Of a DNA stretch of 64,000 nt, positions 1 through 47,437 are shown piece by piece. Made by a program: the position numbers and the translations under genes. The number at the start of each line of letters is the position of its first letter. The stretch's first letter is position 1. Below the pieces are notes generated by a model, which was not told where the DNA came from, did not search any database, and was given only the letters and a program-made list of their open reading frames with translations. The stretch is from Owenia fusiformis (taxonomy: Eukaryota; Annelida; Polychaeta; Sabellida; Oweniidae): positions 10,977,375-11,041,374 of the forward strand of contig CAIIXF020000005.1 of NCBI GenBank assembly GCA_903813345.2, written 5' to 3'.

Positions 1-379
1 CCCCAGTTTTTTTCAACGCAATTTTGAAGTTTGAAATTCGCACTTGCCAGTATTCACAATGCAGATTGATCAAATAAACGTTCAAAAATTCCTGCATACC
101 CTACTTTATCTCTCTACCTACTCAGCTACTTATTTGACTACTTACTCAATTACTTTATTAGTTATTACTTACTTAGCAACTTACTCAGCTACTAACTCAG
201 GTACTTACTCAGCTACCTACTCAGCTTTTTACCCAGTTACTTACTCAACTACTTACTCAACTACTACTAAGGTACTTACTCAGCTAATTACTCAGTTACT
301 TACTCAGCTCTTTACTGATCTATCTAGGTCAAATAAATCTGGAGTCTTAAATTGAACTTGTTCAATTTCACAAATCTAG
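1..379 (+). repeat. Composite unit 1 (3' part only)
   Basis: Only the tail is in the window. It has a degenerate TACTCAGC/TACT minisatellite at about 110-320, then ATCTGGAGTCT, a hairpin at 349-368 with a TT loop, and CTAG at 376-379. Confidence 0.6.
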
Positions 380-3205
380 TTATTATTCTTCCTCCTTCCC
401 AGATTTCTCACCAACTAGAAGAGCTTACTTTAAGCTGTTTACATGACCAACTAAAGACTGAATCTGGCTTTCTGGGAAATTAGGTCAAATTTTTATCTAG
501 GTCAAAGGTCAAGAACTAGGTCAAATCTTGCATTTTCAACATTCTTTCAATTATCTTCGTCGTTATTTATTGAAACAACTTTGTCTTTTTTTCATCATGT
601 AGCTTAGAAACAGCTCTTTCAAAGATATGCCATCAGATTTTTAATTACTCGTACCGATTTTTAGATATGGCGTCCGGAAAGTAGGTCAGAACAAAAAGTT
701 CTCCGAATTCAACATATGAGCTATGGAATAAGCGTAGAATGATCTCAGGAATCCGAATCTGCAAACCAAATTTCGATCCGACTCCTGGTACGGAAGTTAT
801 GGCGTTTTGAAAGCTCAAAAATCGCTAAATTTGGTGCCCATGTTAAGTCAATGGGAAAAAAAATTTTTTTGAAGTGAAAAATACGAAATATAGACTGAGT
901 TCAGCTAAATATAATGAAAGCTTTTAAAAGAAGGGGACCTCATAAGTCATCTAGCTTCAAAATTTGGACACCAAAATGCCTAGGTCAAAATCTAGGTCAA
1001 ATTCAAAGTTTTTCCTTATTTTTGTGATTCTGACACTACAGATTAATTATATTCTTCGAAATTTTGTATACATGTAGCTAAGAGTCTGCTAATAGTGTAA
1101 GCCTTTTGCCGTCAGAAAGTATTTTGCCCCGTTTTTGAGATATGGTGTCCGAAAAGTAGGTCAAAATAAAAAATTCTCAAATTTTGACGTTTGAGTTATG
1201 AACTAAGTAAAGAATTTTCTCAGGAATCCGAATCTGCAAACCAAATTTCGATCCGACTTCCGGTTTGGAAGTTATGGCGTGTCCGAAAAGTAGGTCAAAA
1301 TAAAAAGTTTCCAAATTTAACGTATGAGCTATGAATTAAGGATAGAATTTTCTCTGGAATCCAAATCTGCAAACCAAATTTCGATCCGACTTCCGGTTCA
1401 GAAGTTATGGCGTTTTGAAAGCTCAAAAATCGCTAAATTTGGTGCCCCATGTTATGTCAATGGGAAAAAATATTTTTTGAAGTGTAAAATACGAGATATA
1501 GACTAAGTACAGCTAAACATAATGGAAGCCCATAAAAGAAGGGGACCTAAAAACCTTCTAATCTTGAAAATTTGGACAACAAAATGCCTAGGTCAAAATC
1601 TAGGTCAAATTCAAAGTTTTTCCTTATTTTTGCGATTCTGACACTACACTTTAATTATATTCTTCGAAATTGTGTATACATGTAGCCAAGAGTGTGCTAA
1701 TAGTGTTAGCCTTTTGCCGTCAAAAAGTATTTTGACCCACTTTTGAGATATGGTGGCCCAAAAGTAGGTCAAAATAAAAAAATCTTCAAATTTAACGTAT
1801 GAGTTATGAATAAGAGGTAAAATTTTGTCAGGAATCCGAATCTGCAAATCAAATTTTGATTCGACCTCCTGTTCGGAAGTTATTGCGTTTTGAAAGCTCA
1901 AAAATCGCTAAATTTGCTGCCCCATGTTATATCAATGGGAAAAAGATTTTTTTGAAGTGTAAAATACGAGATATAGACTGAGTACAGCTTAATATAATGA
2001 AAGCCTATTAAAGAAGGGGACCTCGAAGGCTACTTAGCTCCAAAATTTGGACACCAAAATGCCTAGGTCAAAATCTAGGTCAAATTTATAGTTTTCCCTT
2101 ATTTTTGCGATTTTGACACTATATTTAAATGATTTGCTTTAAAATTTTGTATACAGGTAGCAAAGAGTATGCTTATAGTGTTAGCGTTTTGCCGTCAGAA
2201 AGTATTTTGACCCACTTTTGAGATATGGTGTCCGAAAAGTAGGCCAAAGTAAAAAGTTTTCCAAATTTAACGTATGAGTTATGAATTAAGGGTAGAATTT
2301 TCTCAGAAATCTAGATCTGCAAACCAAATTTCGATCCGACTACTTGTTCTGAAGTTATGGCGTTTTGAAATCTCAAAAATGGCTAAATTTGGTGCCCCAT
2401 GTTAAATCAATGGGACCGAATAATTTTTTGAAGTGTAAAAATACGAGATATAGAATGAGTACAGCTAAACATAATGAAAGCCCATAGAAGGGGACCTCAA
2501 AAGCTACTTTCCTTCAAAGTTTGGACACCAAAATACCTAGTTCAAAATCTAGGTCAAATTCATAGTTTTTTTTTATTTTGCGATTCTGACACTACACTTC
2601 AATGATATCCTCCGAAATTTTGTATACTTGTAGCAAAGAGTGTGCTAATAATGTTAACATTTTGCCGTCAATAAGTTTTTTGACCCACTTTTGAGATATG
2701 GTGTCCGAAATGTAAGTCAAAATAAAAAGTTCGCCAATTTTAAATTATGAGTTATGAATTAGGGGTAGAATTTCCTCAGGAATCCGGATCTGAAATTAAA
2801 ATTGCAATCCGACGCCCGGTTTAGATTCTACGCCATTTTGAAGTTTGAAATTCGCACTTGCCAGTATTCACGATGCAGATTGATCAAATATACTTTCAAA
2901 AATTCCTGCATACCCTACTTTACCTCTCTACCTACTCAGCTACTTATTTGACTACTTACTCAATTACTTAATTAGTTATTACTTACTTAGCAACTTACTC
3001 AGCTACTAACCCAGGTACTTACTCAGCTACTTACTCAGCTACCTACTCAGCTTTTTACTCAGTTACTTACTCAGCTACTTACTCAACTACTACTAAGGTA
3101 CTTACTCAGCTAATTACTCAATTACTTACTCAGCTCTTTACTGATCTATCTAGGTCAAATAAATCTGGAGTCTTAAATTGAACTTGTTCAATTTCACAAA
3201 TCTAG
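380..3205 (+). repeat. Composite unit 2, four 475-bp monomers
   Basis: The head contains a perfect AGGTCA DR1 at 499-511. Four monomers follow, marked by CTAGGTCAAAATCTAGGTCA-type sequence near 989, 1587, 2061 and 2541. The interval between the first two is about 600 bp because a partial monomer of about 130 bp is inserted. The tail is a TACTCAGC minisatellite (about 2925-3145), with a hairpin at 3175-3194 (loop TT). From about 840 onward it is nearly identical to unit 3 at an offset of 2,844 bp. Confidence 0.6.
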
Positions 3206-6049
3206 TTATTATTATTCTTTCAGAATCTTCCTCCTTCCCAGATTTCTCACCAACTAAAAGAATTTACTTTAAGCTGCTTACATGATCAACTAGGGGCAGT
3301 ACCTGGGATGATGGGAAATTAGGTCAAATTTTTATCTAGGTCAAGGGTCAAGAACTAGGTCAAATCAAGGTCAAATCAACATTCTGTCAATTATCTTCGT
3401 TGTTGTTTGTCGTAACTACTTCATCTTAGTTTCTACATGTAGCTTAGAAAAAAACAAATCGAGAGTGTGCCATCCGTTTTTTGATTACTCTTAGCGATTT
3501 TGAGATATGGCGTCCTGAAAGTAGGTCAAAACCAAAAAGTTCTCCAGATTTAACATATGAGCTATGAAATAAGGGTAGAATTTTCTCAGGAATCCGAATC
3601 TGCAAACCAAATTTTGATCCGACTTCCCGTTCGGAAGTTATGGCGTTTTGAAAGCTCAAAAATCGCTAAATTTGGTGCCCCATGTAAAGTCAATGGGAAA
3701 AAAGATTTTTTTGAAGTGAAAAATACGAAACATAGACTGAGTTCAGCTAAATATAATGAAAGCTTTTAAAAGAAGGGGACCTCATAAGCCATCTAGCTTC
3801 AAAATTTGGACACCAAAATGCCTAGGTCAAAATCTAGGTCAATTTCAAAGTTTTTCCTTATTTTTGCGATTCTGACACAACAGATTAATTATATTCTTCG
3901 AAATTTTGTATACATGTAGCTAAGAGTCTGCTCATAGTGTTAGCCTTTTGCCGTCAGAAAGTATTTTGCCCCATTTTTGAGATATGGTGTCCGAAAAGTA
4001 GGTCAAAATAAAAAATTCTCAAAATTTGACGTTTGAGTTGTGAATTAAGTATAGAATTTTCTCAGGAATCCGAATCTGCAAAACAAATTTCGATCCGACT
4101 TCCGGTTTGGAAGTTATGGCGTGTCCGAAAAGTAGGTCAAAATAAAAAAATTCCAAATTTAACGTATGAGCTATGAATTAAGGATAGAATTTTCTCTGGA
4201 ATCCAAATCTGCAAACCAAATTTCGATCCGACTTCCGGTTCGGAAGTTATGGCGTTTTGAAAGCTCAAAAATCGCTAAATTTGGTGCCCCATGTTATGTC
4301 AATGGGAAAAAATATTTTTTTGAAGTGTAAAATACAAGATATAGACTAAGTACAGCTAACCATAATGGAAGCCCATAAAAGAAGGGGACCTCAAAACCTT
4401 CTAATCTTGAAAATTTGGACAACAAAATGCCTAGGTCAAAATCTAAGTCAAATTCAAAGCTTTTCCTTATTTTTGCGATTCTGACACTACACTTTAATTA
4501 TATTCTTCGAAATTGTGTATACATATAACCAAGAGTGTGCTAATAGTGTTAGCCTTTTGCCGTCAAAAAGTATTTTGACCCACTTTTGAGATATGGTGTC
4601 CCAAAAGTAGGTCAAAATAAAAAAATCTTCAAATGTAACGTATGAGTTATGAATAAGAGGTAAAATTTTGTCAGGAATCCGAATCTGCAAATCAAATTTT
4701 GATTCGACCTCCTGTTCGGAAGTTATTGCGTTTTGAAAGCTCAAAAATCGCTAAATTTGCTGCCCCATGTTATATCAATGGGAAAAAAGATTTTTTTGAA
4801 GTGTAAAATACGAGATATAGACTGAGTACAGCTTAATATAATGAAAGCCTATTAAAGAAGGGGACCTCGAAGGCTACTTAGCTCCAAAATTTGGACACCA
4901 AAATGCCTAGGTCAAAATCTAGGTCAAATTTATAGTTTTCCCTTATTTTTGCGATTTTGACACTATATTTAAATGATTTGCTTTAAAATTTTGTATACAG
5001 GTAGCAAAGAGTATGCTTATAGTGTTAGCGTTTTGCCGTCAGAAAGTATTTTGACCCACTTTTGAGATATGGTGTCCGAAAAGTAGGCCAAAGTAAAAAG
5101 TTTTCCAAATTTAACGTATGAGTTATGAATTAAGGGTAGAATTTTCTCAGAAATCTAGATCTGCAAACCAAATTTCGATCCGACTACTTGTTCTGAAGTT
5201 ATGGCGTTTTGAAATCTCAAAAATCGCTAAATTTGGTGCCCCATGTTAAATCAATGGGACCGAATAATTTTTTGAAGTGTAAAAATACGAGATATAGAAT
5301 GAGTACAGCTAAACATAATGAAAGCCCATAGAAGGGGACCTCAAAAGCTACTTTCCTTCAAAGTTTGGACACCAAAATACCTAGTTCAAAATCTAGGTCA
5401 AATTCATAGTTTTTTTTTATTTTGCGATTCTGACACTACACTTCAATGATATCCTCCGAAATTTTGTATACTTGTAGCAAAGAGTGTGCTAATAATGTTA
5501 ACATTTTGCCGTCAATAAGTTTTTTGACCCACTTTTGAGATATGGTGTCCGAAATGTAAGTCAAAATAAAAAGTTCGCCAATTTTAAATTATGAGTTATG
5601 AATTAGGGGTAGAATTTCCTCAGGAATCCGGATCTGAAATTAAAATTGCAATCCGACGCCCGGTTTAGATTCTACGCCATTTTGAAGTTTGAAATTCGCA
5701 CTTGCCAGTATTCACGATGCAGATTGATCAAATATACTTTCAAAAATTCCTGCATACCCTACTTTACCTCTCTACCTACTCAGCTACTTATTTGACTACT
5801 TACTCAATTACTTAATTAGTTATTACTTACTTAGCAACTTACTCAGCTACTAACCCAGGTACTTACTCAGCTACTTACTCAGCTACCTACTCAGCTTTTT
5901 ACTCAGTTACTTACTCAGCTACTTACTCAACTACTACTAAGGTACTTACTCAGCTAATTACTCAATTACTTACTCAGCTCTTTACTGATCTATCTAGGTC
6001 AAATAAATCTGGAGTCTTAAATTGAACTTGTTCAATTTCACAAATCTAG
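3206..6049 (+). repeat. Composite unit 3, four 475-bp monomers
   Basis: This unit is exactly 2,844 bp long and nearly identical to the 3' part of unit 2 and the 5' part of unit 4. Monomer markers lie near 3819, 4431, 4905 and 5383. The head DR1 is a variant (AGGTCAAGGGTCA). The tail is a TACTCAGC minisatellite (about 5770-5990), with a hairpin at 6019-6038 (loop TT). Confidence 0.6.
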
Positions 6050-9000
6050 TTATTATTATTCTTTCAGAATCTTCCTCCTTCCCAGATTTCTCACCAACTA
6101 AAAGAATTTACTTTAAGCTGCTTACATGATCAACTAGGGGCAGTACCTGGGATGATGGGAAATTAGGTCAAATTTTTATCTAGGTCAAGGGTCAAGAACT
6201 AGGTCAAATCAAGGTCAAATCAACATTCTGTCAATTATCTTCGTTGTTGTTTGTCGTAACTACTTCATCTTAGTTTCTACATGTAGCTTAGAAAAAAACA
6301 AATCGAGAGTGTGCCATCCGTTTTTTGATTACTCTTAGCGATTTTGAGATATGGCGTCCTGAAAGTAGGTCAAAACCAAAAAGTTCTCCAGATTTAACAT
6401 ATGAGCTATGAAATAAGGGTAGAATTTTCTCAGAAATCCGAATCTGCAAACCAAATTTTGATCCGACTTCCCGTTCGGAAGTTATGGCGTTTTGAAAGCT
6501 CAAAAATCGCTAAATTTGGTGCCCCATGTAAAGTCAATGGGAAAAAAGATTTTTTTGAAGTGAAAAATACGAAACATAGACTGAGTTCAGCTAAATATAA
6601 TGAAAGCTTTTAAAAGAAGGGGACCTCATAAGCCATCTAGCTTCAAAATTTGGACACCAAAATGCCTAGGTCAAAATCTAGGTCAAATTCAAAGTTTTTC
6701 CTTATTTTTGCGATTCTGACACAACAGATTAATTATATTCTTCGAAATTTTGTATACATGTAGCTAAGAGTCTGCTCATAGTGTTAGCCTTTTGCCGTCA
6801 GAAAGTATTTTGCCCCATTTTTGAGATATGGTGTCCGAAAAGTAGGTCAAAATAAAAAATTCTCAAAATTTGACGTTTGAGTTGTGAATTAAGTATAGAA
6901 TTTTCTCAGGAATCCGAATCTGCAAAACAAATTTCGATCCGACTTCCGGTTTGGAAGTTATGGCGTGTCCGAAAAGTAGGTCAAAATAAAAAAATTCCAA
7001 ATTTAACGTATGAGCTATGAATTAAGGATAGAATTTTCTCTGGAATCCAAATCTGCAAACCAAATTTCGATCCGACTTCCGGTTCGGAAGTTATGGCGTT
7101 TTGAAAGCTCAAAAATCGCTAAATTTGGTGCCCCATGTTATGTCAATGGGAAAAAATATTTTTTTGAAGTGTAAAATACAAGATATAGACTAAGTACAGC
7201 TAACCATAATGGAAGCCCATAAAAGAAGGGGACCTCAAAACCTTCTAATCTTGAAAATTTGGACAACAAAATGCCTAGGTCAAAATCTAAGTCAAATTCA
7301 AAGCTTTTCCTTATTTTTGCGATTCTGACACTACACTTTAATTATATTCTTCGAAATTGTGTATACATATAACCAAGAGTGTGCTAATAGTGTTAGCCTT
7401 TTGCCGTCAAAAAGTATTTTGACCCACTTTTGAGATATGGTGTCCCAAAAGTAGGTCAAAATAAAAAAATCTTCAAATGTAACGTATGAGTTATGAATAA
7501 TGGGTAGAATTTTATCAGGAATCCGAATCTGCAAATCAAATTTTGATTCGACCTCCTGTTCGGAAGTTATGGTGTTTTGAAAGCTCAAAAATCGCTAAAT
7601 CTGCTGCCCCATGTTATGTCAATGGGAAAAAAGATTTTTTTGAAGTGTAAAATACGAGATATAGACTGAATACAGCTTAATATAATGAAAGCCTATTAAA
7701 GAAGGGGACCTCGAAGGCTACTTAGCTCCAAAATTTGGACACCAAAATGCCTAGGTCAAAATCTAGGTCAAATTTATAGTTTTCCTTTATTTTTGCGATT
7801 CTGAGATTATATTTAAATGATTTGCTTTAAAATTTTGTATACAGGTAGCAAAGAGTATGCTAATAGTGTAAGCGTTTTGCCGTCAGAAAGTATTTTGACC
7901 CACTTTTGAGATATGGTGTCCCAAAAGTAGGTCAAAATAAAAAAATCTTCAAATTTAACGTATGAGTTATGAATAAGGGGTAGAATTTTATCAGGAGTCC
8001 GAATCTGCAAATTCAATTTTGATTCGACCTACTGTTCGGAAGTTATGGCGTTTTGAAAGCTCTAAAATCACTAAATTTGCTGCCCCATGTTATGTCAATG
8101 GGAAAAAAGATTTTTTTGAAGTGTAAAATACGAGATATAGACTGAGTACAGCTTAATATAATGAAAGCCTATTAAAGAAGGGGACCTCAAAGGCTACTTA
8201 GCTCCAAAATTTGGACACCAAAATGCCTAGGTCAAAATCTAGGTCAAATTTATAGTTTTCCCTTATTTTTGCGATTCTGACACTATATTTAAATTATTTG
8301 CTTTACAATTTTGTATACAGGTAGCAAAGAGTATGCTTATAGTGTTAGCGTTTTGCCGTCAGAAAGTATTTTGACCCACTTTTGAGATATGGTGTCCGAA
8401 AAGTAGGCCAAAGTTAAAAGTTTTCCAAATTTAACGTATGAGTTATGAATTAAGGGTAGAACTTTCTCAGAAATCTAGATCTGCAAACCAAATTTCGATC
8501 CGACTACTTGTTCTGAAGTTATGGCGTTTTGAAATCTCAAAAATCTCTAAAATTGGTGCCCCATGTTAAATCAATGGGACCGAATAATTTTTTGAAGTAT
8601 AAAAATAAGAGATATAGAATGAGTACAGCTAAACATAATGAAAGCCCATAGAAGAAGGGGACCTCAAAAGCTACTTTCCTTCAAAGTTTGGACACCAAAA
8701 TACCTAGTTCAAAATCTAGGTCAAATTCATAGTTTTTTTTATTTTGCGATTCTGACACTACACTTCAATGATATTCTCCGAAATTTTGTAAACTTGTAGC
8801 AAAGAGTGTGCTAATAATGTTAACATTTGCCGTCAATAAGTTTTTTGACCCACTTTGAGATATGGCGTCGGAAATGTAGGTCAAAATAAAAAGTTCTCCA
8901 ATTTTAAAGTATGAGTTATGAATTAGGGGTAGAATTTCCTCAGGAATCCGGATCTGAAATTAAAATTGCAATCCGACCCCCGGTTTAGATTCTATGCCAT

Positions 9001-9357
9001 TTTGAAGTTTGAAATTCGCACTTGCCAGTATTCACGATGCAGATTGATCAAATATACTTTCAAAAATTCCTGCATACCCTACTTTACCTCTCTACCTACT
9101 CAGCTACTTATTTGACTACTTACTCAATTACTTAATTAGTTATTACTTCCTTAGCAACTTACTCAGCTACTAACTCAGGTACTTACTCAGCTACTTACTC
9201 AGCTACCTACTCAGCTTTTTACTCAGCTACTTACTCAACTACTACTAAGGTACTTACTCAGCTAATTACTCAGTTACTTACTCAGCTCTTTACTGATCTA
9301 TCTAGGTCAAATAAATCTGGAGTCTTAAATTGAACTTGTTCAATTTCACAAATCTAG
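6050..9357 (+). repeat. Composite unit 4, five 475-bp monomers
   Basis: This is the longest unit. Its first 1.4 kb is almost the same as unit 3, then one extra monomer appears. Monomer markers lie near 6663, 7273, 7748, 8225 and 8699. The tail is a TACTCAGC minisatellite (about 9080-9295), with a hairpin at 9327-9346 (loop TT). The single extra monomer relative to unit 3 is consistent with unequal exchange between monomers. Confidence 0.6.
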
Positions 9358-10880
9358 TTATTAGACTCCAGATTTCATCTGGAGTCTATTGCTTTTGCCA
9401 GTTTTCTTATTATTAGACTCCAGATGTCAATCTGGAGTCTATTGTTTTTGCCAGTATTCTTTATTATTCTTCTTCTTATTATTATTATTCTTCTACCTAC
9501 GTTTTCTCACTAACTAGAAGACATTGAGTCAAGTCCTTTATACAGTCAAGTTAGGTTCAGTATCTAGTTTCTGGGAAATTGGGTCAATTTTTTATCTAGG
9601 TCAAAGGTCAAGAACTAGGTCAAATCTTACATTTTCAATATTCTATCAATTATCTTCGTCATTATTTATTGAAACATCCTTGTCTTTTTTTCATCATGTA
9701 GCCAAGAAACAGCCCTTTCATAAGTGTGCCATCCGTTTTTTGATTACTCTTACCGATTTTGAGATATGGCGTCCAGAAAGTAGGTCACACCAAAACGTGC
9801 TCCAAATTCAATGTATGAGTTATGAATTAGGGGTAGAATTATGTCAGGAATCCGAATCTGCAAACCAAATTTCGCTCCGACTTCCGGTTCGGAAGTTATG
9901 GCGTTTTGAAAACTCAAAAATCGCTAAATTTGGTGCCCATGTTAAGTCAATGGGAAAAAAGATTTTTTTGAAGTGAAAAATACGAAATATAGACTGAGTT
10001 CTGCTTCATATAATCAAAGCCTTTAAAAGAAGGTGACCTCAAAAGCCACAAAGCTTCAAAATTTGGACACCAAAATGCCTAGGTCAAAATCTAGGTCAAA
10101 TTCAAAGTTTTTTCTTATTTTTGCGATTCTGACACTACACTTTAATTATATTCTTCGAAATTGTGTATACATGTAACCAAGAGTGTGCTAATAGTGTTAG
10201 CCTTTTGCCGTCAGAAAGTATTTTGACCCACTTTTGAGATATGGTGTCCGAAAAGTAGGTCAAAATAAAAAGTTCTCCAAATTTAACGTATGAGTTATGA
10301 ATTAGGGGTAGAATTTTGTCAGGAGTCCGAATCTGCAAACCAAATTTCGATCCGACTTCCGGTTTGGAAGTTATGGCGTGTCCGAAAAGTAGGTCAAAAT
10401 AAAAAGTTTTCCAAATTTAACATATGAGTTATGAATTAGGGGTAGAATTTTGACAGGAATCCGAATCTGCAAATCAAATTTCGATCTGACTTCCGGTTCG
10501 GAAGTTATGGCGTTTTGAAATTTCAAGAAAAATTGATCTGATGGTATCCTGATAGAAAGTCAAGAGTAGAGAAGAAAATATTGAAAAATGCATCCATCCT
10601 TCCTTTCTGATCCTATCCTATCCTTCCCATCTACCCTTGCTTCGTATCCTCTCCTTCCTATTCTATCCCTTCTTCCTATTCTATCCTATCCTTCTTTCCT
10701 ATTCTATCCTATCGTTCCTTCCTATTCTATCCTATCCTTCCTTCCTTTTTCATCCATCCATCCTTCTTTTTCTTGATGACTTAGCTTATTTTGGATGACT
10801 TGGCTTATTCTGGATGACTCGGCTAAAAAAAGTCTAGATCTGGAGTCTGAAATTGAACTCGTTCAATTTCCAAAATCTAG
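9358..10880 (+). repeat. Composite unit 5, one 475-bp monomer with two palindromic leaders
   Basis: The unit begins with two copies of the AGACTCCAGAT palindrome. A head with a perfect DR1 near 9597 follows, then one monomer (marker near 10077) plus a partial repeat. The tail differs from units 1-4: a TCCTTCCTATCC-type minisatellite (10593-10760), then GGATGACT(C)GGCTTA repeats (about 10776-10825). The hairpin is at 10850-10869 with loop TC. Confidence 0.58.
9363..9440 (+). repeat. Two short palindromic leaders (possible 5' ends of the HINE)
   Basis: AGACTCCAGAT, a 3-4 nt loop and ATCTGGAGTCT occur at 9363-9387 and 9415-9440. Each is followed by ATTG(C/T)TTTTGCCAGT(A/T)TTCTT. The left arm is the inverted complement of the ATCTGGAGTCT that precedes every 3' hairpin in the array, which is the arrangement expected of the asymmetric inverted repeats of Helentron-type elements. 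Confidence 0.5.
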
Positions 10881-12383
10881 TTATTATTATTATTATTATT
10901 AGACTCCAGATGTCAATCTGGAGTCTATTGTTTTTGCCAGTATTCTTCTTCTTCTTATTATTTTTCTTTAAGAGTTTTTTCAATAACTATAAGGTATCCA
11001 GTAAAGATCATAATACAGTATATTTAGGTTCAGTATCTAGTTGGTGGGAAATTGGGTCAAATTTTTATCTAGGTCAAAGGTCAAGAACTAGGTCAAATCC
11101 AGTACTTTGTCACTTTTTTCGATTTTCTCAGTCGTCCTTCAATATTTTCGATCCGGGTTTTTTTCATTGTGTTCCTCATAAAAAAGTAGTATCAAGAAAC
11201 ACGATTTAGATTTTTGATATCTCGAACCGATTTCGAGATATCAGTGTCCGAAGACGAGGTCCAAAAAAAAATTCTCCGAATCAAATGTCCAGGATATTAG
11301 TCTTATAGGAAATTTTCTCAGGATTCCGAATCTGAAAACCAAATTTGGATTGGACTTCCGGTTCAGAAGTTATGGCGTTTTGAAAGCTCAAAAATCGCTA
11401 AATTTGGTGCCCATGTTAAGTCAATGGGAAAAAATATTTTTTCGAAGTGAAAAATACGAAATATAGACTGAGTTCAGCTTAATATAATGATAGCTTTTAA
11501 AAAAATGGGACCTCAAAAGCCATCTAGCTTCAAAATTTGGACCCCAAAATGCCTAGGTCAAAATCTAGGTCAAATTCAAGGTTTTTCCTTATTTTTGCGA
11601 TTCTGACACTACAGATCAATTATATTCTTTGAAATTTTGTATACATGTAGACAAGAGTGTGCTAATAGTGTTAGCCTTTTGCCGTCAGGAAGTATTTTGC
11701 CCCACTTTTGAGATATGGTGTCCAAAAAGTAGGTTAAAATAAAAAATTCTCCAAATTTAACGTTTGAGTTATGAAGTAAGTACAGAATTTTCTCAGGAAT
11801 CCGAATCTACAAACCAAATTTCGATCCGACTTCCGGTTCAGAAGTTATGGCGTGTCCGAAAAGTAGGTCAAAATAAAGATTTGCCAAATTTAACGTATGA
11901 GTTATGAATTAGGGGTAGAATTTTGTCAGGAATCCGAATCTTTAAATCAAATTTCGATTTGACTCCTGGTTCGGAAGTTATGGCGTTTTGAAATTTCGGA
12001 AAATCGATCTGATGGTATCCTGATAGAAAGTCAAGAGTAGAGAAGAAAATATTGAAAAATTCATCCATCCTTCCTATCTGATCTTACCCTATCCTATCCT
12101 ATCCTTCCTATCTATCCTTCCTTCGTATCATTTCCTTCCTATCCTTCCTATCCTCTCCTATCATATCCTTTCTTCCTATTCTGTTCTATACTATCCTTCT
12201 TTCTTATTCTATCCTATCGTTCCTTCCTATTCTATCCTATCCTACCTTCCTATTTTATCCATCCATCTTTTTCTGGATGACTCAGCTTATTTTGGATGAC
12301 TCGGCTTATTCTGGATGACTCGGCTAAAAAAAAGTCTAGATCTGGAGTCTGAAATTGAACTTCGTTCAATTTCCAAAGTCTAG
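10881..12383 (+). repeat. Composite unit 6, one 475-bp monomer with one palindromic leader
   Basis: The unit starts with a TTATTA run and one palindrome at 10901-10926, followed by a perfect DR1 near 11071. There is one monomer (marker near 11549) and a TCCTATCC minisatellite (about 12062-12260) with GGATGACTCAGC/GGCTTATT repeats (12273-12325). The hairpin is at 12352-12372 with loop TTC. Confidence 0.58.
10901..10926 (+). repeat. Short palindromic leader
   Basis: AGACTCCAGAT, loop GTCA, ATCTGGAGTCT. It lies 20 nt after the CTAG end of unit 5, behind a TTA run, and is followed by ATTGTTTTTGCCAGTATTC. Confidence 0.5.
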
Positions 12384-15056: not shown

Positions 15057-16987
15057 TTATTATTAGACTCCAGATGAAAATCTGGAGTCTATTGCTTTTG
15101 CCAGTTTTCTTATTATTATTATTAGACTCCAGATTTCATCTGGAGTCTATTGCTTTTGCCAGTTTTCTTATTATTATTAGACTCCAGATTGAAAATCTGG
15201 AGTCTATTGCTTTTGCCAGTTTTCTTATTATTATTCTTTCTTTCTTTCTTTCCGTACACGTTTTCTCAGCAACTAGAAGAGCTTACTTTAACCTACTTAC
15301 ATGGCTAACATAGCCCATCGACCTAGTTTCTGGGAAATTAGGTCAACTTTTTATCTAGGTCAAAGGTTAAGAACTAGGTCAAATCTTACATTTTTAACAT
15401 TCTGTCAATTATCTTCGTCATTATTTATCGAAACACCTGGATGTACATCTCATTGTGTAGCTTAGAAAAAAACAAATCGAGAGTGTGCCATCCGTTTTTT
15501 GATTACTCTTACCGATTTTGAGATATGGCGTCCGGAAAGTAGGTCAAACTAAAAAGTTAACCAAATTTATTATATGAGCTATGAAATAAGTGTAGAATTT
15601 TCTCAGGAATCTGAATCTGCAAACCAAATTCCGATCCGACTTCCGGTTCGGAAGTTATGGGGTTTTGAAAACTCAAAAATCGCTAAATTTGGTGCCCATG
15701 TTAAGTCAATGGGAAAAAAGATTTTTTTGAAGTGAAAAATACGGAATATAGACTGAGTTCAGCTTCACATTATCAAAGCCTTTAAAAGAAGGGGACCTCA
15801 AAAGCCATCTAGCTTCAAAATTTGAAAACCCATATGCCTAGGTCAAAATCTAGGTCAAATTCATAGGTTTCCCTTATTTTTTCGATTCTGACACTACACT
15901 TTAATTATATTCTTCGAAATTGTGTATATATGTAGCCAAGAGTGTGCTAATAGCGTTAGCCTTTTGCCGTCAGAAAGTATTTTGACCCACTTTTGAGATA
16001 TGGTGTCCAAAAAGTAGGTCAAAATAAAAAGTTCTCCAAATTTAACGTTTGAGTTATGAATTAAGAGTAGAATTTTCTCAGAAATCCGAATCTGCAAACC
16101 AAATTTCGATCCGACTTCCGGTTCCGAAGTTATGGCGTGTCCAAAAAGTAGGTCAAAATAAAAATTCGCCAAATTTAACGTATGAGTTATGAATTGGGGA
16201 TAGAATTTTGTCAGGAATCAGAATCTTTAAATCAAATTTAAATCCGACTTCCGATTCGGAAGTTATGGCGTTTTGAAATTTCGGAAAATCGATCTGATGG
16301 TATCCTGATAGAATGTCAAGGAAAAAAGATTTTTTTTGAAGTGTAAAATACGAGATATAGATTGAGTACAGCTTAAGATAATGAATCCCTATAAAAGAAG
16401 GGGACCTCAAAAGCTACCTAGTTTCAATATTTGGACACCAAAATGCCTAGGTCAAAATCTAGGTCAAATTCATAGTTTTTCCTTATTTTTGCGATTCTGG
16501 CACTACATTTTTAGGATTTGCTTCAAAATTTTGTATACAGGTAGCAAAGAGTGTGCTAATAGTGAGAGCCTTTTGCCGTCAGAAAGTATTTTGACCCACT
16601 TTTGAGATATGGTGTCCGTAAAGTAGGTCAAAATAAAAAGTTCTCATAATTCAACTTATGAGTTATGAATTAAGAGTAGAATTTTCTCAGGAATCCGAAT
16701 CTGCAAACCAAATTTCAATCCGACTTCCGGTCAAAAATTCCTACTTACCTACCTACTTACCTACTCGGCTACCTACTCAGCTACCTACTCAGCTACTTAC
16801 TCAGCTACCTACTCAGCTACTTACTCAGCTACCTGCTCAGCTGCTTACTCAGCTACCTACTCAGCTATTTACTCAATTACTTAATCATCTACTTACTCAG
16901 CTTCCTACTCAGTTACTTACTCAGCTCTTTACTCAAGTAAATCAATCTGGAGTCTTAAATTGAACTTTGTTCAATTTACCAATCTAG
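15057..16987 (+). repeat. Composite unit 8, two 475-bp monomers with three palindromic leaders
   Basis: The unit begins with three palindromic leaders (15065-15205) and a TTTC run. The head DR1 is degraded (second half AGGTTA, near 15357). Monomer markers lie near 15838 and 16446. The tail is a clean TACTCAGC/TACC minisatellite (16735-16935). The hairpin is at 16957-16977 with loop TTT. Confidence 0.58.
15065..15205 (+). repeat. Three short palindromic leaders in tandem
   Basis: Palindromes lie at 15065-15090 (loop GAAA), 15124-15148 (loop TTC) and 15179-15205. They are spaced about 55-59 bp apart and each is followed by ATTGCTTTTGCCAGTTTTC and a TTATTA run. They look like successive abortive or solo 5' ends placed next to the CTAG end of unit 7. 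Confidence 0.5.
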
Positions 16988-19536
16988 TTATTATTATTTT
17001 TCTTTCCGAACCAGTTTTCTCAGCAACTAGAAGGACTTACTTAAATCTGCTAACACAGTCAACTGGGTAATGAGACCTAGTTTCTGGGAAATTAGGTCAA
17101 ATGTTTATCTAGGTCAAACGTCAAAATCTAGGTCAAATCGTTAGTTTTCACTATTTTACAAGTTTTCTCAGTCGTCCTTCGGTATTTTGGCTCCGGGTTT
17201 TTTTCATCTTGTAGCTTAGATAAAAAGCTAATTCCGAAAGGCAAATCGTTTTTTGATTACTCTTACCGATTTTGAGAAATGACGTCCGAAAAGTAGGTCA
17301 GAACATAAAAAGTCCTCCAAATTCAACGTGTGAATTATCAAATAGGTGTAGAATGATCTCAGGAATCCAAATCTGCAAACAAAATTTCAATCCGACTTCC
17401 GGTTCGGAAGTTACAGCGTTTTGAAATCTCAAAATAGCTAAATTTGGCGCCCCATGTTAAGTCAATGGGGAAAAAGACTTCTTCGAAGTGTTAAATACGA
17501 GATATAGACTGAGTACAGCTTAACATAATGAAAGCCTATTAAAGAAGAGGACCTCGAAGGCTATCTAGCTTTAAAATTTGGACAGCAAAATGCCTAGGTC
17601 AAAATCTAGGTCAAATTTATAGTATTTTCTTATTTTTGCGATTCTGACACTACACTTTAATAATTTGCTTCAAAATTTTGCACACATGTAGCAGAGAGTG
17701 TGCTAATAGTGTTAGCCTTTTGCCGTCAAAAAGTATTTTGACCCACTTTTGAGATATGGTGTCCGAAAAGTAGGTCAAAATAAAATGCTCTCAAAATTTA
17801 ACATATGAGCTATGAATTAAGGGTAGAATTTTCCCAGGAATCCGAATCTGCAAACTAAATTTCAATCCGACTTTCGGTTCGGAAGTTATGGCGTTTTGAA
17901 AGCTCAAAAATCGCTAAATTTGGTGCCCCATGTTATGTCAATGAGAAAAAAGATTTTTTTGAAGTGTAAAATACCAGATATAAACTGAGTACAGCTTAAC
18001 ATTCTGAAAGCCTATAAAAGAAGGGGACCTCGAAAGCTATCTAGCTTTAAAATTTGGACACCAAAATGCCTAGGTCAAAATCTAGGTCAAATTCATAGTT
18101 TTTCCTTATTTTTGCGATTCTGGCACTACACTTTTAGGATTTGCTTCAAAATTTTGTATACAGGTAGGAAAGAGTGTGCTAATAGTGAGAGCCTTTTGCC
18201 GTCAGAAAGTATTTTGACCCACTTTTGAGATATGGTGTCCGGAAAGTAGGTCAAAATAAAAATTTCTCATAATTTAACTTATGAGTTATGAATTAAGGGT
18301 AGAATTTTCTCAGGAATCCGAATCTGCAAACCAAATTTCAATTCGACTTTTTGTTGGGAAGTTATGGCGTTCTGAAAGCTCAAAAATCGCTAATTTTGGT
18401 GCCCCATGTAATGTCAATGAGAAAAAAGATTTTTTTGAAGTGTAAAATACCAGATAAAGACTGAGTACAGCTTAAGATTCTGAAAGTCTATAAAAGAAGG
18501 GGACCTCGAAGGCTATCTAGCTTTAAAATTTGGACACCAAAATCCCTAGGTCAAAATCTAGGTCAAATACATAGTTTTTCCTTATTTTTGCGATTCTGGC
18601 ACTACACTTTTAGGATTTGCTTCAAAATTTTGTATACAGGTAGCAAAGAGTGGGCTAATAGTGTTAACCTTTTGCCGTCAGAGAGTATTTTGACCCACTT
18701 TTGAGATATGGTGTCCGAAATGTAGGTCAAAATAAAAAATTCTCCAAATTTTACATATGAGTTATGAATTAAGAGTAGAATTTTGTCAGGAATCCGAATC
18801 TTTAAATCAAATTTCGATCCGACTTCCGGTTTGAAAGTTATGGCGTTTTGAAATTTCGAGAAAAATCGATCTGATGTTATCCTGATAGAAAGTCAAAGAA
18901 AAAAGATTTTTTTGAAGTGTAAAATACGAGATATAGATTGAGTACAGCTTAAGATAATGAATTCCTATAAAAGAAAGGGACCTCAAAAGCTAACTAGTTT
19001 CAATATTTGGACACCAAAATGCCTAGGTCAAAATCGAGGTCAAATTCATAGTTTTTCCTTATTTTTGCGATTCTGGCACTACACTTTTAGGATTTGCTTC
19101 AAAATTTTGTATACAGGTAGCAAAGAGTGTGCTAATAGTGTTAGCCTTTTGCCGTCAGAGAGTATTTTGACCCACTTTTGAGATATGGTGTCCGTAAAGT
19201 AGGTCAAAATAAAATGAGTTATGAATTAAGGGTAGAATTTTCTCAGGAATCCGAATCTATAAACTGATTCTCGATCAAACTTCTGGTTAGATAGTTATAG
19301 CGGTTTGAAGTCTCGAAAAGTCGATATGAAGTTATCCCCATGTCATGCATATGGAGTCAAAGATAACATTCTTAAGAGTTGTCAAAATGTCTATATTCTA
19401 GCTGACTCAGCTTATAGTGAATGACTCAGCTTACAAGTAATTGGATGACTCAGCTTACAAGTAATTGGATGACTCAGCTTAAAACAAGTCTTAAATCTGG
19501 AGTCTTAAATTGAACTTGTTCAATTTACATGTCTAG
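16988..19536 (+). repeat. Composite unit 9, four 475-bp monomers
   Basis: The head DR1 is degraded (second half ACGTCA). Monomer markers lie near 17595, 18067, 18545 and 19019. The tail has three or four GATGACTCAGCTTA-type repeats (about 19400-19480). The hairpin is at 19507-19526 (loop TT). Confidence 0.58.
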
Positions 19537-21248
19537 TTATTATTCATTCTTTCTTTCTTTCTTTCCGAACACTTTTTCTCAGCAACTAGAAGAACTGACT
19601 TTAACCTACTTACATGGCTAACATAGCCCATCAACCTAGTTTCTGGGAAATTAGGTCAAATTTTTATCTAGGTCAAAGGTCAAGAACTAGGTCAAATTTA
19701 GGTAAAATTAACATTCTGTCAATTATCTTCGTTGTTACTTGAGGTAACTCCTTCATCTTTTTTTCAACATGTAGCTTAGAAAAAAACAAATCGAGAGTGT
19801 GCCATCCGTTTTTTGATAACTCTTAGCGATTTTGAGATATGGCGTCCGGAAAGTAGGTCAAACTAAAAAAGTTCTCCAAATTTAGCATATGAGCTATGAA
19901 ATAAGGGTAGAATTTTCTCAGGAATCCGAATCTGCAAACCAAATTTCGATCCGACCTCCCGTTCGGATGTTATGGCGATTTGAAAGCTCAAAAATCGCTA
20001 AATTTGGTGCCCCATGTTAAGTCAATGGGAAAAAAGACTTTTTTTAATTGTAAAATATGAGATATAGACAGAGTGCAGCTTAACATAATGAATTCCTATA
20101 AAGGAAGGGTACCCAAAAGCTACCTAGCTTCAAAATTTGGACACCAAAATCCCAAGGTCAAAATCTAGGTCAAATTGATAGTTTTTCCTAATTTTTACGA
20201 TTCTGACACTACACTTAAATGATTTGCTTCTAAATTTTGTATACAGGTAGCAAAGAGTGTGCTAATAATGTTAGCTTTTTGCCGTCAGAAAGTATTTTGA
20301 CCCACTTTTGAGATATGGTGTCCGAAAAGTAGGTCAAAATAAAAAGTTCTCCAAATTTAACATATGAGCTATGAAATAAGGGTAGAATTTTCTCAGGAAT
20401 CCGAATCTGCAAACCAAATTTTGATTCGACTTCCAAATCGGAAGTTATGGCATTTTGAAAGCTCAGAAATTGCTAAATTTGGCCCCATGTTATATCAATA
20501 GGGAAAAATATCTTTTTGAAGTGTAAAATACCAGGTATAGACTGAGTACAGCTCAACATAATAAAAGTCTATAAAAGAAGGGGACCTCAAAGGCTACCTA
20601 GTTTCAAAATGTGGACACCAAAATGCCAAGGTCAAAATCTAGGTCAAATTCATAGCTTTTCCTTATTTTTGCGATTCTGACATTACACTTTAATAATTTG
20701 CTTCAAAATTTTGTATACATGTAACAAAGAGTGTGCTAATAGTGTTAGCCTTTTGCCGTCAGAAAGTATTTTGACCCACTTTTGAGATATGGTGTCTGAA
20801 AAGTAGGTCAAAATAAAAAGTTCTCCAAATTTAACTTATGAGTTATGAATTAAGGGTAGAATTTTCTAAGGAATCCAAATCTGCAAATCAACTTTCAATC
20901 CGACTCCCAGTTTAGATTCTATGCCATTTTAAAATTCACATTTGTTTAAAATTCACATTTGCCAGTATCCACAATGCAGATCCATCAAATATACTTTCAA
21001 CAATTTCTACTTACCTACCTACCTACATACCTACTCGGCTACCTACTTAGCTACCTACTTCTCAGCTACCTACTCAGCTACTTACTCAGCTACCTACTCA
21101 GCTACTTACTCAGCTACCTTTTCAGCTACCTACTCAGCTACTTACTCAATTACTTAATCATCTACGTACTCAGCTTCCTACTCAGCTCTTTACTCAAGTA
21201 AATCAATCTGGAGTCTTAAATTGAACTATGTTCAATTTACCAATCTAG
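19537..21248 (+). repeat. Composite unit 10, two 475-bp monomers
   Basis: Perfect DR1 in the head near 19670. Monomer markers lie near 20151 and 20627. The tail is a TACTCAGC/TACC minisatellite (21005-21190). The hairpin is at 21218-21238 with loop TAT. Confidence 0.58.
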
Positions 21249-23263
21249 TTATTCTTCCTCCTCACCAAATTTCTCGTCAACTATAACAGCTTACTTAATC
21301 CAACTTACATGGTTAACTAAAGACTGAAACCGGCTTTCTGGGAAATTAGGTCAAATTTTTATCTAGGTCAAAGGTCAAGAACTAGGTCAAATCTTACATT
21401 TTCAACATTCTTCATCATATCTTCGTCAATATTCTTCGTAACTCCTTCATCTTTTTTTCATCGTGTAGCTTAGAAAAAGGCGAATCAAAGATATGACATC
21501 AGAATTTTGATTACTCTTACCGATTTTGAGATATGGCGTCCGAAATGTAGGTCACGCCAAAACATGCTCCAAATCGAATGTGTGAGCTATGAAAAAGATG
21601 TAGAATTTTCTCAGGAATCCAAATCTGCAAACCAAATTTGGATCCGACTCCCGGTTCGGAAGTTATGGTGTTTAGAAAACTCAAAAATCGCTAAATTTGG
21701 TGCCTATGTTAAGTCAATGGGAAAAAAGACTTTTTCGAAGTGTAAAATACAGGATATAGACTGAGTACAGCTTAACATAATGAATGCTTATAAAAGAAGG
21801 GGACCTCAAAAGCTACATAGCTTCAAAATTTGGACACCAAAATGCCTAGGTCAAAATCTAGGTCAAATTCATAGTTTTTCCTTATTTTTACGATTCTGAC
21901 ACTACACTTTAATAATTTACTTCAAAATTTTGTATACAGGTAGCAAAGAGTGTGCTAATAGTGTTAGCCTTTTGCCGTCAGAAAGTATTTTGACCCACTT
22001 TTGAGATATGGTGTCCGAAAAGTAGGTCAAAATAAAAAGTTCTCCAGATTCAACGTATGAGTTATGAATTAAGGGTAGAATTTTCTCAGGAATCCGAATC
22101 TGCAAACTAAATTTCGATTCGACTTCCGGTTCGGAAGTTATGGCGTGTCCAAAAAGTAGGTCAAAATAAAAAAATTCCAAATTTAACGTATGAGTTATGA
22201 ATTAGGGGTAGAATTTTGTCAGGAATCCGAATCTGCAAACCAAATTTCGATCCGACTCCAGTTCCGAAAGTTATGGCGTTTTGAAAGCTCAAAAATCGCT
22301 AAATTTGGTGCCCCATGTTATGTCAATGAGAAAAAGGATTTTTTGAAGTGTAAAATACCAGATATAGACTGAGTACAGCTTAATATTCTGAAAGCCTATA
22401 AAAGGAGGGGACCTCGAAGGCTATCTAGCTTTAAAATTTGGACGCAAAAATGCCTTGGTCAAAATCTAGGTCAAATTCATAGTTTTTCCTTATTTTTGCG
22501 ATTCTGACATTACACTTTAAGGATTTGCTTCAAAATTTTGTATACAGGTAGCAAAGGGTGTGCTAATAGTGTTAGCCTTTTGCCGTCAGAAAGTATTTTG
22601 ACCCACTTTTGAGATATAGTGTCCGAAAAGTAGGTCAACATGAAAGTTTCTCCAAATTTAACGTATGAGTTATGAATTAAGGGTAGAATTTTCTCAGGAA
22701 TCCGAATCTGCAAATCAAATTTCAATCCGACACCTGGTTTGGAAGAAATGGCGTTTTGAAAAATTAAAAAATTGGTATTTTGATATCCCATGTTATGTCA
22801 ATTATCTTTGTCACTATTCGTCGTTATTCCTTTATCTTTTTTCAGCATGTAGCTTAAAGACAGTCCTTTCATTATTGTAACTGTCTTTTTTGATTACTCT
22901 TACCGATTTTGAGGAATGGCGTCCGGAAAGTAGGTCAACATAAAAAGTTCTCAAAATTTAATGTATGAGTTATGACATAAACGTAGAATTTTCTCAGAAA
23001 TTCGAATCTGCAAACCAAATTTCGACCCAAATTCTGGTTAGATAGTTATAGCTGTTTGAAGTCTCGAAAAGTCGATATTATGATATCCCCATGTTAAGCC
23101 AATGTAGACGAAGATAAGCTACTTACGAGTTGTCTAAATGTCTGTATTCTAGATGACTCAGCTTATTCTGAATGGCTCAGCTTACAGTATTTTGGATGAC
23201 TCAGCTTAAAAAAAGTTTTAAATCTGGAGTCTTAAATTGAACTTGTTCAATTTACATGTCTAG
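21249..23263 (+). repeat. Composite unit 11, two 475-bp monomers
   Basis: Perfect DR1 in the head near 21364. Monomer markers lie near 21846 and 22452. The 3' part jumps from a monomer into sequence resembling a second head (about 22795-22900), which suggests recombination between units. The tail has about three GGATGACTCAGCTTA-like repeats (23150-23210). The hairpin is at 23234-23253 (loop TT). Confidence 0.55.
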
Positions 23264-25328
23264 TTATTATTATTCTTTCCGAACCAGTTTTCTCAGCAAC
23301 TAGAAGGGCTTACTTAAATCTGCTAACATAGTCAACTAGGTAATGATACCTAGTTTCTGGGAAATTATGTCAAATGATTATCTAGGTCAAAGGTCAAGAA
23401 CTAGGTCAAATCGTGGGTTTTCACTATTTTACAAGTTTTCTCAGTCGTCCTTCGGTATTTTTGCTCCTGGTTTTTTTCATCATGTTCCTTAGATAAAAAG
23501 CTAATTCCGTAAGGCAAATCGTTTTTTGATAACTCTTACCGATTTTGAGAAATGACGTCCGAAAAGTAGGTCAGAACATAAAAAGTTCTCCAAATTCAAC
23601 GTGTGAATCATCAAATAAGTGTAGAATTATCTCAGGAATCCGAATCTGCAAACCAAATTTCGATCCGACTTCCGGTTCGGAAGTAATAGCGTTTCGAAAT
23701 CTCAAAAATCGCTAAATTTGGTGCCCATGTTAAGTCAATGGGAAAAAAGATTTTTTTGAAGTGATAAATACGAAATATAGACTTAGCTCAGCTTAATATA
23801 ATGAATGCCTATAAAAGAAGGGGACCTCAAAAGTTATATAGCTTCAAAATTTGGACACCAAAATGCCTAGGTCAAAATCTAGGTCAAATTTATAGTTTTT
23901 CCTTATTTTTACGATTCTGACACTACACTTTAATAATTTGCTTCAAAATTTTGCATACATGTGCAAAGAGTGTGCTAATAGTGTTAGCCTTTTGCCGTCA
24001 GAAAGTATTTTGACCCACTTTTGAGATATGGTGTCCAAAATGTAGGTCAAAATAAAAAGTTCTCAAAATTTAGCGTATGAGTTATGAATTAAGGGTAGAA
24101 TTTTCTCAGGAATCCAAATCTGCAAACCAAATTTCAATCCGACTATTGGTTCGGAAGTTATGGCGTTTTGAAAGCTAAAAAATCGCTAAATTTGGTGCCC
24201 CATGTTATGGCAATGGGAAAAAAGATTTTTTTGAAGTGTAAAATACGAGATATAGACTGAGTACAGCTTCACACAATGAAAGCCTACAAAAGAAACGGAC
24301 CTCAAAAGCTATCTAGCTTCAAAATTTGGACACCAAAATGCCTAGGGTCAATATCTAGGTCATATTCATAGTTTTATCTTATTTTTGCGATTCTGACATT
24401 ACACTTTAATGATTTGCTTTGAAATTTTGTATACATGTAGCAAAGAGTGTGCTAATAGTGTTAGCCTTTTGCCGTCAGGAAGTATTTTGACCCACTTTTG
24501 AGATATGGTGTCCGTAAAGTAGGTCTAAATTGAAATTTCTCATAATTTAACTTATGAGTTATGAATTAAGGGTAGAATTTTCTCAGGAATCCGAATCTGC
24601 AAACCAAATTTCAATCCGACTTTTCGTTGGGAAGTTATGGCGTTTTGAAAGCTCAAAAATCGCTAATTTTGGTGCCCAATGTTATGTCAATGAGAAAAAA
24701 GATTTTTTTGAAGTGTATAATTCCAGATAAAGACTGAGTACAGCTTAAGATTCTGAAAGTCTATAAAAGAAGGGGACCTCGAAGGCTATCTAGCTTTAAA
24801 ATTTGGACACCAAAATCCCTAGGTCAAAATCTAGGTCAAATACATAGTTTTTCCTTATTTTTGCGATTCTGGCACTACACTTTTAGGATTTGCTTCAAAA
24901 TTTTGTATACAGGTAGCAAAGAGTGGGCTAATAGTGTTAGCCTTTTGCCGTCAGAGAGTATTTTGACCCACTTTTGAGATATGGTGTCCGAAAAGTAGGT
25001 AAAAATAAAAAATTCTCCAAATTTTACATATGAGTTATGAATTAAGAGTAGAATTTTCTCAGGAATCCGAATCTGCAAACCAATTTTCGATCAAACTTCT
25101 GGTTAGATAGTAATAGCGGTTTGAAGTCTCGAAAAGTCGATATGATGATATCCCCATGTCATGCATATGGAGTCGAAGATAACATTCTTAAGAGTTGTCT
25201 AAATGTCTATATTCTAGCTGACTCAGCTTATAGTGAATGACTCAGCTTACAAGTAATTGGATGACTCAGCTTAAAACAAGTCTTAAATCTGGAGTCTTAA
25301 ATTGAACTTGTTCAATTTACATGTCTAG
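23264..25328 (+). repeat. Composite unit 12, three 475-bp monomers, end of array
   Basis: Perfect DR1 in the head near 23384. Monomer markers lie near 23870, 24343 and 24820. The tail has GACTCAGCTTA repeats (25215-25272). The hairpin is at 25299-25318 (loop TT). CTAG at 25325-25328 is followed by TTATTCATAGG and non-repeat DNA, so this is the 3' boundary of the whole array. Confidence 0.6.
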
Positions 25329-47309: not shown

Positions 47310-47437
47310 AAAATGCTGAAATACTGGATTAGACCTATGATAGACCTAACATCAAGAGAAGGAGAGACAAGCTATAGTTCATAGATGAACCTTTTTGCTA
47401 CTACTTTGTTTGACACAAGATTTCCACTATTATCTAA

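What the first reader, a model, noticed from the sequence alone, without database searches (positions are those of the whole stretch)
1..25328. A 25-kb head-to-tail array of Helentron-like elements behaving like a satellite
Seen: twelve units each end in ATCTGGAGTCT, a hairpin, then CTAG|TTATT, and each next unit starts directly after. Internal monomers vary from one to five per unit. Known: Helitron2/Helentron HINEs have 3' hairpins, asymmetric inverted repeats and internal minisatellites, and rolling-circle elements can form tandem arrays. Inference: this array grew by tandem rolling-circle insertion at the same junction plus unequal exchange. Composite units with both 475-bp monomers and three different minisatellite tails may be an undescribed family.
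Basis: partly seen in the sequence, partly recalled or inferred. Interest (0 to 1): 0.78.

Follow-up and report, generated by a model that had tools for sequence, protein, structure and literature searches.

The report
Tandem stack of hitchhiking jumping genes
At one animal locus about a dozen copies of a gene-less jumping element sit nose to tail; they fall into four related types, and one recent copying accident between neighbours can be read directly in the sequence.

Summary
Bases 1-25,328 carry 12 complete 3' ends (ATCTGGAGTCT, hairpin, CTAG), each followed at once by TTATT: 11 complete units and one cut by the window start. The layout matches HINEs (non-autonomous Helentrons).

Growth was mixed. 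U2 is a clean crossover product: its left half matches right neighbour U3 (2 differences in 1,430 bases), its right half left neighbour U1 (1 in 1,392), the order that unequal crossing-over gives when it adds a unit. Elsewhere neighbours are no more alike than distant units, the 3' ends form four types, and subTIR, hairpin arms and CTAG are invariant although monomer 1 differs by 12% on average. I infer that different HINE sub-families entered at the T-rich CTAG|TTATT junction and were later reshuffled. A single rolling-circle concatemer is not supported. The host genome is not held, so dispersed copies, empty sites and an autonomous partner could not be tested. Probably a new member of a known kind.

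The parts
1..379 (+). U0: 3' part of a unit cut by the window start; 12-mer tail, 3' end type a
380..3205 (+). U1: unit without 5' module, 4 monomers, 12-mer tail, 3' type a; left neighbour of the mosaic U2
3206..6049 (+). U2: mosaic unit without 5' module, 4 monomers; left half like U3, right half like U1
4635..4657 (+). Interval holding the crossover in U2 (unit positions 1430-1452)
6050..9357 (+). U3: unit without 5' module, 5 monomers, 12-mer tail, 3' type a
9358..10880 (+). U4: unit with two 5' modules, 1 monomer, ATCCT + 19-mer tail, 3' type b
9363..9406 (+). U4 first 5' module: subTIR AGACTCCAGAT, loop TTC, IR ATCTGGAGTCT, ATTGCTTTTGCCAGTTTTC (identical to U7's second module)
9415..9459 (+). 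U4 second 5' module: loop GTCA, ATTGTTTTTGCCAGTATTC (identical to the U5 module)
10881..12383 (+). U5: unit with one 5' module, 1 monomer, ATCCT + 19-mer tail, 3' type b; the simplest complete HINE here
10901..10945 (+). U5 5' module (subTIR + IR hairpin, loop GTCA)
12384..15056 (+). U6: unit without 5' module, 4 monomers, 19/24-mer-type tail, 3' type c
15057..16987 (+). U7: unit with three 5' modules, 2 monomers, 12-mer tail, 3' type d
15065..15224 (+). U7 5' modules, three copies (from 15065, 15124, 15179), separated by TTATT tracts
16988..19536 (+). U8: unit without 5' module, 4 monomers, 24-mer tail, 3' type c
19537..21248 (+). U9: unit without 5' module, 2 monomers, 12-mer tail, 3' type d
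21249..23263 (+). U10: unit without 5' module, 2 monomers, 19-mer tail, 3' type c
23264..25328 (+). U11: last unit, no 5' module, 3 monomers, 24-mer-type tail, 3' type c
25287..25328 (+). Example 3' end: subTIR ATCTGGAGTCT, hairpin, variable spacer, TCTAG; the same order at all 12 ends
25329..25333 (+). TTATT directly after the last CTAG; the sequence beyond has no array homology in the window

Best explanation
Each unit is a HINE, a gene-less element that would be moved by a Helentron Rep/helicase. SHOWN in the sequence: HINE anatomy (3' subTIR, hairpin and CTAG in all 12; 5' subTIR + inverted repeat + T-rich microsatellite in U4, U5, U7); four 3'-end types in the order a a a a b b c d c d c c; U2 with the structure of one recent crossover between misaligned neighbours; monomers whose nearest relatives lie in other units, as if multiplied before the units split. 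INFERRED: members of several sub-families, which diverged while still under selection for usable 3' ends, inserted one after another at the same T-rich spot just behind an existing element's CTAG (T-rich or TT targets are the published HINE preference), so units abut exactly. Exchange or slippage between the TTATT tracts on both sides of the 5' module then deleted it from eight units (at least three losses on the head tree) and stacked it in U4 and U7. Unequal crossing-over inside the monomers added U2, and an earlier exchange changed the head of U1 or U3.
For: Exact junctions, 12 of 12. Layout of published HINEs. U2 positions 1-1430: 2 substitutions from U3 and 96 from U1; positions 1452-2844: 1 from U1 and 29 from U3, gaps not counted; informative substitutions 95:1 against 1:29, Fisher p = 3e-26. 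U2 has the right neighbour's left half and the left neighbour's right half, as unequal duplication predicts, and like U1 lacks the 476-bp extra monomer of U3. Constraint: 39 of 49 aligned terminal columns are invariant in all 12 ends (subTIR 11, arms 9 + 9, TCTAGTTATT 10); the 10 variable ones are the base after the subTIR, the loop and the spacer; among the 11 complete units 39% of monomer-1 columns and 71% of head columns vary, gaps counted as variation. With a monomer-1 tree length of 0.71 substitutions per site about 28 changes would be expected in 39 columns; none is seen. No neighbour effect: Mantel r 0.07 (heads, all 11 units), -0.01 (heads without U2) and 0.02 (monomer 1 without U2), p 0.27-0.48, against a mean of 0.55 in 500 simulated arrays of 10 units grown by single-unit local duplication. 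Nearest relative of a monomer lies in another unit for 28 of 28 (U2's four dropped).
Against: No dispersed copy, empty site or Rep/helicase could be shown; successive insertion is inferred from the mixing of types. Eight of 11 units lack the 5' module, and in Helraiser the 5' end is the one that is required, so those units may never have moved in their present form. Invariant stretches as long as the single 3' blocks also occur in the bodies: fully invariant 11-column windows in heads and monomer 1, and up to 25 of 29 columns in monomer 1, so only the four blocks together are unusual; homogenisation of ends by gene conversion is not excluded. 3' types show a weak tendency to sit beside their own kind (5 adjacent pairs, 2.3 expected, p = 0.053; 3 against 1.8, p = 0.24, with U1-U3 collapsed). 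The Mantel tests have only 9-11 units, mosaics inflate tree lengths, and my simulation lacks multi-unit duplication and shuffling. The 5' subTIR here lies 5, 8 or 20 bases behind CTAG, against 2-4 from the 5' end in the mite HINEs.
Confidence: 0.6

Rival explanations
1. Rolling-circle concatemer: one transposition event missed the 3' terminator repeatedly and laid down a tandem array, which then diverged.
For: Tandem Helitron arrays in bat and silkworm are explained this way in print; Helraiser circles join the 5' end directly to CTAG; junctions here are exact.
Against: Neighbours often belong to different 3' types and are no more alike than distant units. Divergence in place would not be expected to spare subTIR, hairpin arms and CTAG while loop and spacer change. 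The only near-identical neighbours, U1-U3, are explained by a crossover inside a unit, not at the junction.
Confidence: 0.12
2. Plain satellite dynamics: a few ancestral units expanded and diverged by repeated unequal crossing-over of one or several units; transposition plays no part after the start.
For: One such event is shown (U2). A head difference between U1 and U3 that ends near unit position 385 and monomers shared by U6, U7 and U8 show more exchange. The alternation c d c d could be a duplicated dimer; 3' types have a weak excess of like neighbours (p = 0.053).
Against: No decay of similarity with distance (simulated single-unit duplication gives r about 0.55); invariant functional 3' blocks among otherwise diverged units.
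Confidence: 0.2
3. The near-identical U1-U3 block is partly an assembly artefact in a repeat.
For: U2 has only 1 private substitution and is otherwise a patchwork of its two neighbours.
Against: The switch is single and falls within 22 bases, and U1 and U3 differ by 17% in the first 384 bases and 2-3% after; the rest of the array does not depend on it.
Confidence: 0.08

Closest known systems
Cg_HINE elements of Crassostrea gigas (PMC7492417; outline and abstract, sections 7 and 9, section 10 part 1, and passages read)
   Same: 5' subTIR of 11-12 bp, complementary IR 1-12 bp away, microsatellite, satellite-like central monomers in a fixed orientation, 3' subTIR followed by a palindrome; some elements with two repeat arrays; T-rich targets, no TSD.
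   Different: Monomers there are mostly 140-180 bp, here about 475 bp plus tail minisatellites; the parts I read describe dispersed elements, not a 25-kb stack joined end to start.
HINEs of mite, Culex and Drosophila (Thomas et al. 2014, PMC4067079; outline and abstract, section 4 part 1 of 3, sections 8 and 15, and passages read)
   Same: subTIRs, 3' palindrome, T-rich/TT target, variable number of terminal Ts, tandem repeats in some copies; clusters and tandem arrays discussed.
   Different: In the mite the subTIR lies 38-60 bp from the 3' end and 2-4 from the 5' end; here 31-33 and, behind the preceding CTAG, 5-20. A 3' CTAG is named there as a Helitron-like feature of a Phytophthora intermediate. 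Eight of 11 units here lack the 5' subTIR.
Centromeric Helitron arrays of plants (Xiong et al. 2016; seen only as described in PMC12628747, section 6 part 1, and PMC8268682 passages)
   Same: Tandem arrays of truncated rolling-circle elements.
   Different: Many of those arrays have several 5' ends and a single 3' end; here 12 3' ends and 5' modules in 3 of 11 units.
Helitron-2-derived 154-bp repeats of Drosophila virilis (PMC3833285 passages) and DINE-TR1 (Dias et al. 2015; known only from citations)
   Same: Helitron-related elements as a source of tandem repeats.
   Different: There internal or central repeats are what is tandem; here the whole element is the repeat unit.

Membership tests
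HINE (non-autonomous Helentron) | 3' subTIR followed by a palindrome near the 3' end | tested here: met
   12 of 12 ends: ATCTGGAGTCT, complementary 9-base arms, CTAG; three of 12 folded
HINE (non-autonomous Helentron) | 5' subTIR that is the inverse complement of the 3' one, with nearby IR, then microsatellite | tested here: inconclusive
   Met in 3 of 11 complete units (U4, U5, U7); absent, even with 2 substitutions, within 300 bases of the junction in 8 of 11
HINE (non-autonomous Helentron) | No coding capacity; internal tandem repeats allowed | tested here: met
   Only two stop-to-stop ORFs of 120 aa or more in the array, neither with a Pfam match above cut-off; monomers and minisatellites
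HINE (non-autonomous Helentron) | Insertion in T-rich/TT sequence without target-site duplication | tested here: inconclusive
   TTATT follows every CTAG, including at the array's right edge; the left edge lies outside the window and no empty site is available
HINE (non-autonomous Helentron) | Dispersed copies and an autonomous Rep/helicase/endonuclease partner with shared ends | not testable with these tools
   No genome held; no copy in 25,341-64,000; no Rep or helicase among the 15 of 35 ORFs of 75 aa or more right of the array that were scanned in Pfam
Canonical Helitron | 5' TC end, CTRR 3' end, insertion between A and T | tested here: not met
   3' CTAG fits, but T follows it and units begin TTATT, not TC. 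The definition is recalled, apart from TC and CTAG
Plant-type truncated Helitron array (Xiong et al., as described) | Multiple 5' ends, single 3' end | tested here: not met
   12 3' ends; 5' modules in 3 of 11 units

The most novel reading that the evidence does not exclude
The CTAG|TTATT junction itself is the mobile boundary: a Helentron Rep nicks at the CTAG of the unit upstream and at the unit's own CTAG, so units without any 5' end are still excised as circles and re-inserted at the same junction. The array would then be a self-feeding landing pad that needs only 3' ends.
Probability: 0.1. Interest if true: 0.7.

Novelty: new member of a known kind. Interest (0 to 1): 0.4.

Why it matters
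How whole transposons become satellite-like arrays is argued between rolling-circle concatemers, repeated insertion at one site and unequal crossing-over (the models are reviewed in PMC12628747). This locus records one unequal crossover with both parent units still beside the product, and mixes types at one exact junction, so the models can be told apart by sequence. If dispersed copies of types a-d exist, it would be a clear case of same-site stacking by Helentron relatives. The end pattern, reversed from that described for many plant arrays (3' ends kept, 5' ends mostly lost), is a concrete difference to test.

Tried and rejected
Tried without result: unit U6 in the phage collection (no match); two patterns in viral contigs (none); the 3' end pattern in bacterial and archaeal genomes (two stretches of bacterial MAGs; what follows the match has neither the second hairpin arm nor CTAG at its place, so I take them as chance); Rfam at gathering thresholds (none).

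Rejected: monomer numbers by slippage inside each unit as the main process (0 of 28 nearest monomers in the same unit; U3 may be an exception, since its m3 and m4 are 96.0% alike and each 96.4-96.6% like U1's m3). The six 5' modules as separate mini-elements: they match the published HINE left end and carry no 3' hairpin or CTAG. A loose regular expression for the second half of the monomer matched everywhere and its output was not used. U2 was dropped from the nearest-neighbour count and from most Mantel tests, as stated, because it duplicates its neighbours; with U2 the head test gives r 0.07, p 0.27, and without both U1 and U2 it gives 0.04, p 0.36 (heads) and -0.07, p 0.59 (monomer 1).
Full report
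WHAT IS THERE. The first 25,328 bases hold 12 copies of one 3' end: ATCTGGAGTCT, one variable base, the arm AAATTGAAC, 2-3 loop bases, the arm GTTCAATTT, a variable spacer of 5-6 bases, TCTAG, and then TTATT. I number the units U0 (cut by the window start) to U11. The 11 complete units measure 1,503 to 3,308 bp. Each has a head of about 275-460 bp (5' modules included), one to five monomers of 473-477 bp (608-610 bp where about 134 bp are doubled), and a tail minisatellite of one of three kinds. The 3' ends fall into four types by spacer: a (U0-U3), b (U4, U5), c (U6, U8, U10, U11), d (U7, U9). Three of the 12 ends were folded as single DNA strands and form the hairpin (z -2.6 to -4.0). The base after the subTIR and the first spacer base could extend the stem: G and C in type b, T and A in types c and d, but T and C, which do not pair, in type a.

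After CTAG, units U4, U5 and U7 continue TTATT(ATT)n, AGACTCCAGAT, 3-5 bases, ATCTGGAGTCT, then ATTG(C/T)TTTTGCCAGT(T/A)TTC and a T-rich tract, in 2, 1 and 3 copies. The other eight complete units have no such module within 300 bases, even with two substitutions. This is the left end of the oyster HINEs: 5' subTIR, complementary IR, microsatellite; their right end is 3' subTIR and palindrome (PMC7492417 section 7). HINEs prefer T-rich or TT sites, show no target-site modification and have variable numbers of terminal Ts (PMC4067079). U4's first module is identical to U7's second, and U4's second to U5's, so modules seem to have moved between units at the TTATT tracts.

ONE CROSSOVER CAN BE READ. 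Aligned to its neighbours, U2 differs from U3 at 2 and from U1 at 96 positions over its first 1,430 bases, and from U1 at 1 and from U3 at 29 over its last 1,392 or so (gaps not counted). Informative substitutions switch once, between unit positions 1430 and 1452 (window 4635-4657), with one stray site in each part (Fisher p = 3e-26; the single site at which U2 alone differs was left out). A misaligned crossover between U1 and U3 that adds a unit must give exactly this: right neighbour's left half joined to left neighbour's right half. U1 and U3 themselves differ by 17% in the first 384 bases but by 2-3% after, which suggests an earlier exchange near the end of the head.

HOW THE REST CAME TOGETHER. 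The monomer tree groups monomers across units rather than within them: for 28 of 28 monomers (U2's four dropped) the nearest relative is in another unit. So the multi-monomer element looks like the thing that was copied. Without U2, similarity does not fall with distance along the array (Mantel r -0.01, p 0.48 for heads; 0.02, p 0.43 for monomer 1), whereas 500 simulated arrays of 10 units grown by duplicating single units in place give a mean r of 0.55 and none at or below 0.05. The simulation is simple: no multi-unit steps, no shuffling. From U3 to U11 adjacent units differ by 9-17% in monomer 1. The 3' types show a weak excess of like neighbours (5 against 2.3, p 0.053; with U1-U3 collapsed 3 against 1.8, p 0.24).

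CONSTRAINT. Across 12 ends, 39 of 49 aligned columns are invariant: the subTIR, both arms and TCTAGTTATT; what varies is the base after the subTIR, the loop and the spacer. Among the 11 complete units 39% of monomer-1 columns and 71% of head columns vary, gaps counted as variation. With a monomer-1 tree length of 0.71 per site, about 28 changes would be expected in 39 neutral columns. Against this: fully invariant windows of 11 columns also occur in heads and monomer 1, and one 29-column window of monomer 1 has 25 invariant columns, so it is the four blocks together that stand out; they were noticed first and then matched to the published layout; and mosaicism inflates tree lengths. I take it as good but not exact evidence that the types diverged while their 3' ends were still in use, that is, as mobile sub-families, before or between arrivals here.

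MECHANISM. I therefore favour successive arrivals of HINE sub-families at the T-rich site behind an existing CTAG, with later exchange. Loss of the 5' module is explained by deletion between the TTATT tracts that flank it, needing at least three losses on the head tree (midpoint-rooted, no support values used). A concatemer from missed termination, the explanation in print for bat and silkworm arrays, predicts like neighbours. The plant model (terminator lost from a circle) predicts many 5' and few 3' ends; this is the reverse. In Helraiser the 5' end is required and the 3' end is not strictly so, which sharpens the puzzle of why 3' ends are the intact ones here, and leaves room for the bolder reading that CTAG|TTATT junctions alone suffice.

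LIMITS. No genome is held for the window. The left edge is outside it. No Rep/helicase was found in the right 38.7 kb, but only 15 of 35 ORFs of 75 aa or more there were scanned. The TTATT at the right edge may be host target, element or chance. Anchors for the monomers were set by pattern with two adjustments by hand. Literature was searched in one open-licence library. Papers were seen as outlines, named sections or passages as stated under Closest known systems; of PMC4778049, PMC8268682, PMC2374699 and PMC9659126 I saw passages only. Three further papers are not held, so I make no claim that such arrays are unpublished.

Noticed in passing
40881-46280, - strand: A non-LTR retrotransposon: a 1,194-aa ORF with endonuclease and reverse transcriptase domains (Pfam) and, upstream of it, a 388-aa ORF with only a weak Pfam match below cut-off.
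   Followed up: partly
58511-59953, - strand: A 481-aa open frame of the rhodopsin receptor family (Pfam); the best matches among solved structures are 5-HT1A serotonin receptors. I infer that the host is an animal.
   Followed up: partly
46562-46802 and 47070-47310: A 241-bp inverted repeat, 97.5% identical, around a 37-bp tandem repeat at 46969-47042: possibly a short DNA transposon.
   Followed up: no
26588-26838 and 28316-28567: A 253-bp inverted repeat, 92.5% identical; the first arm contains a short GATGCAACAACAC palindrome.
   Followed up: no
39160-39301: An imperfect palindrome of about 144 aligned bases, 83% self-complementary.
   Followed up: no
units U1-U7 and U10: A duplication of about 134 bp with the GTTATGGCGTGTCC-type joint (found with up to 4 substitutions) in eight units, at different monomer positions: a shared marker of ancestry that could order the exchanges.
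   Followed up: partly
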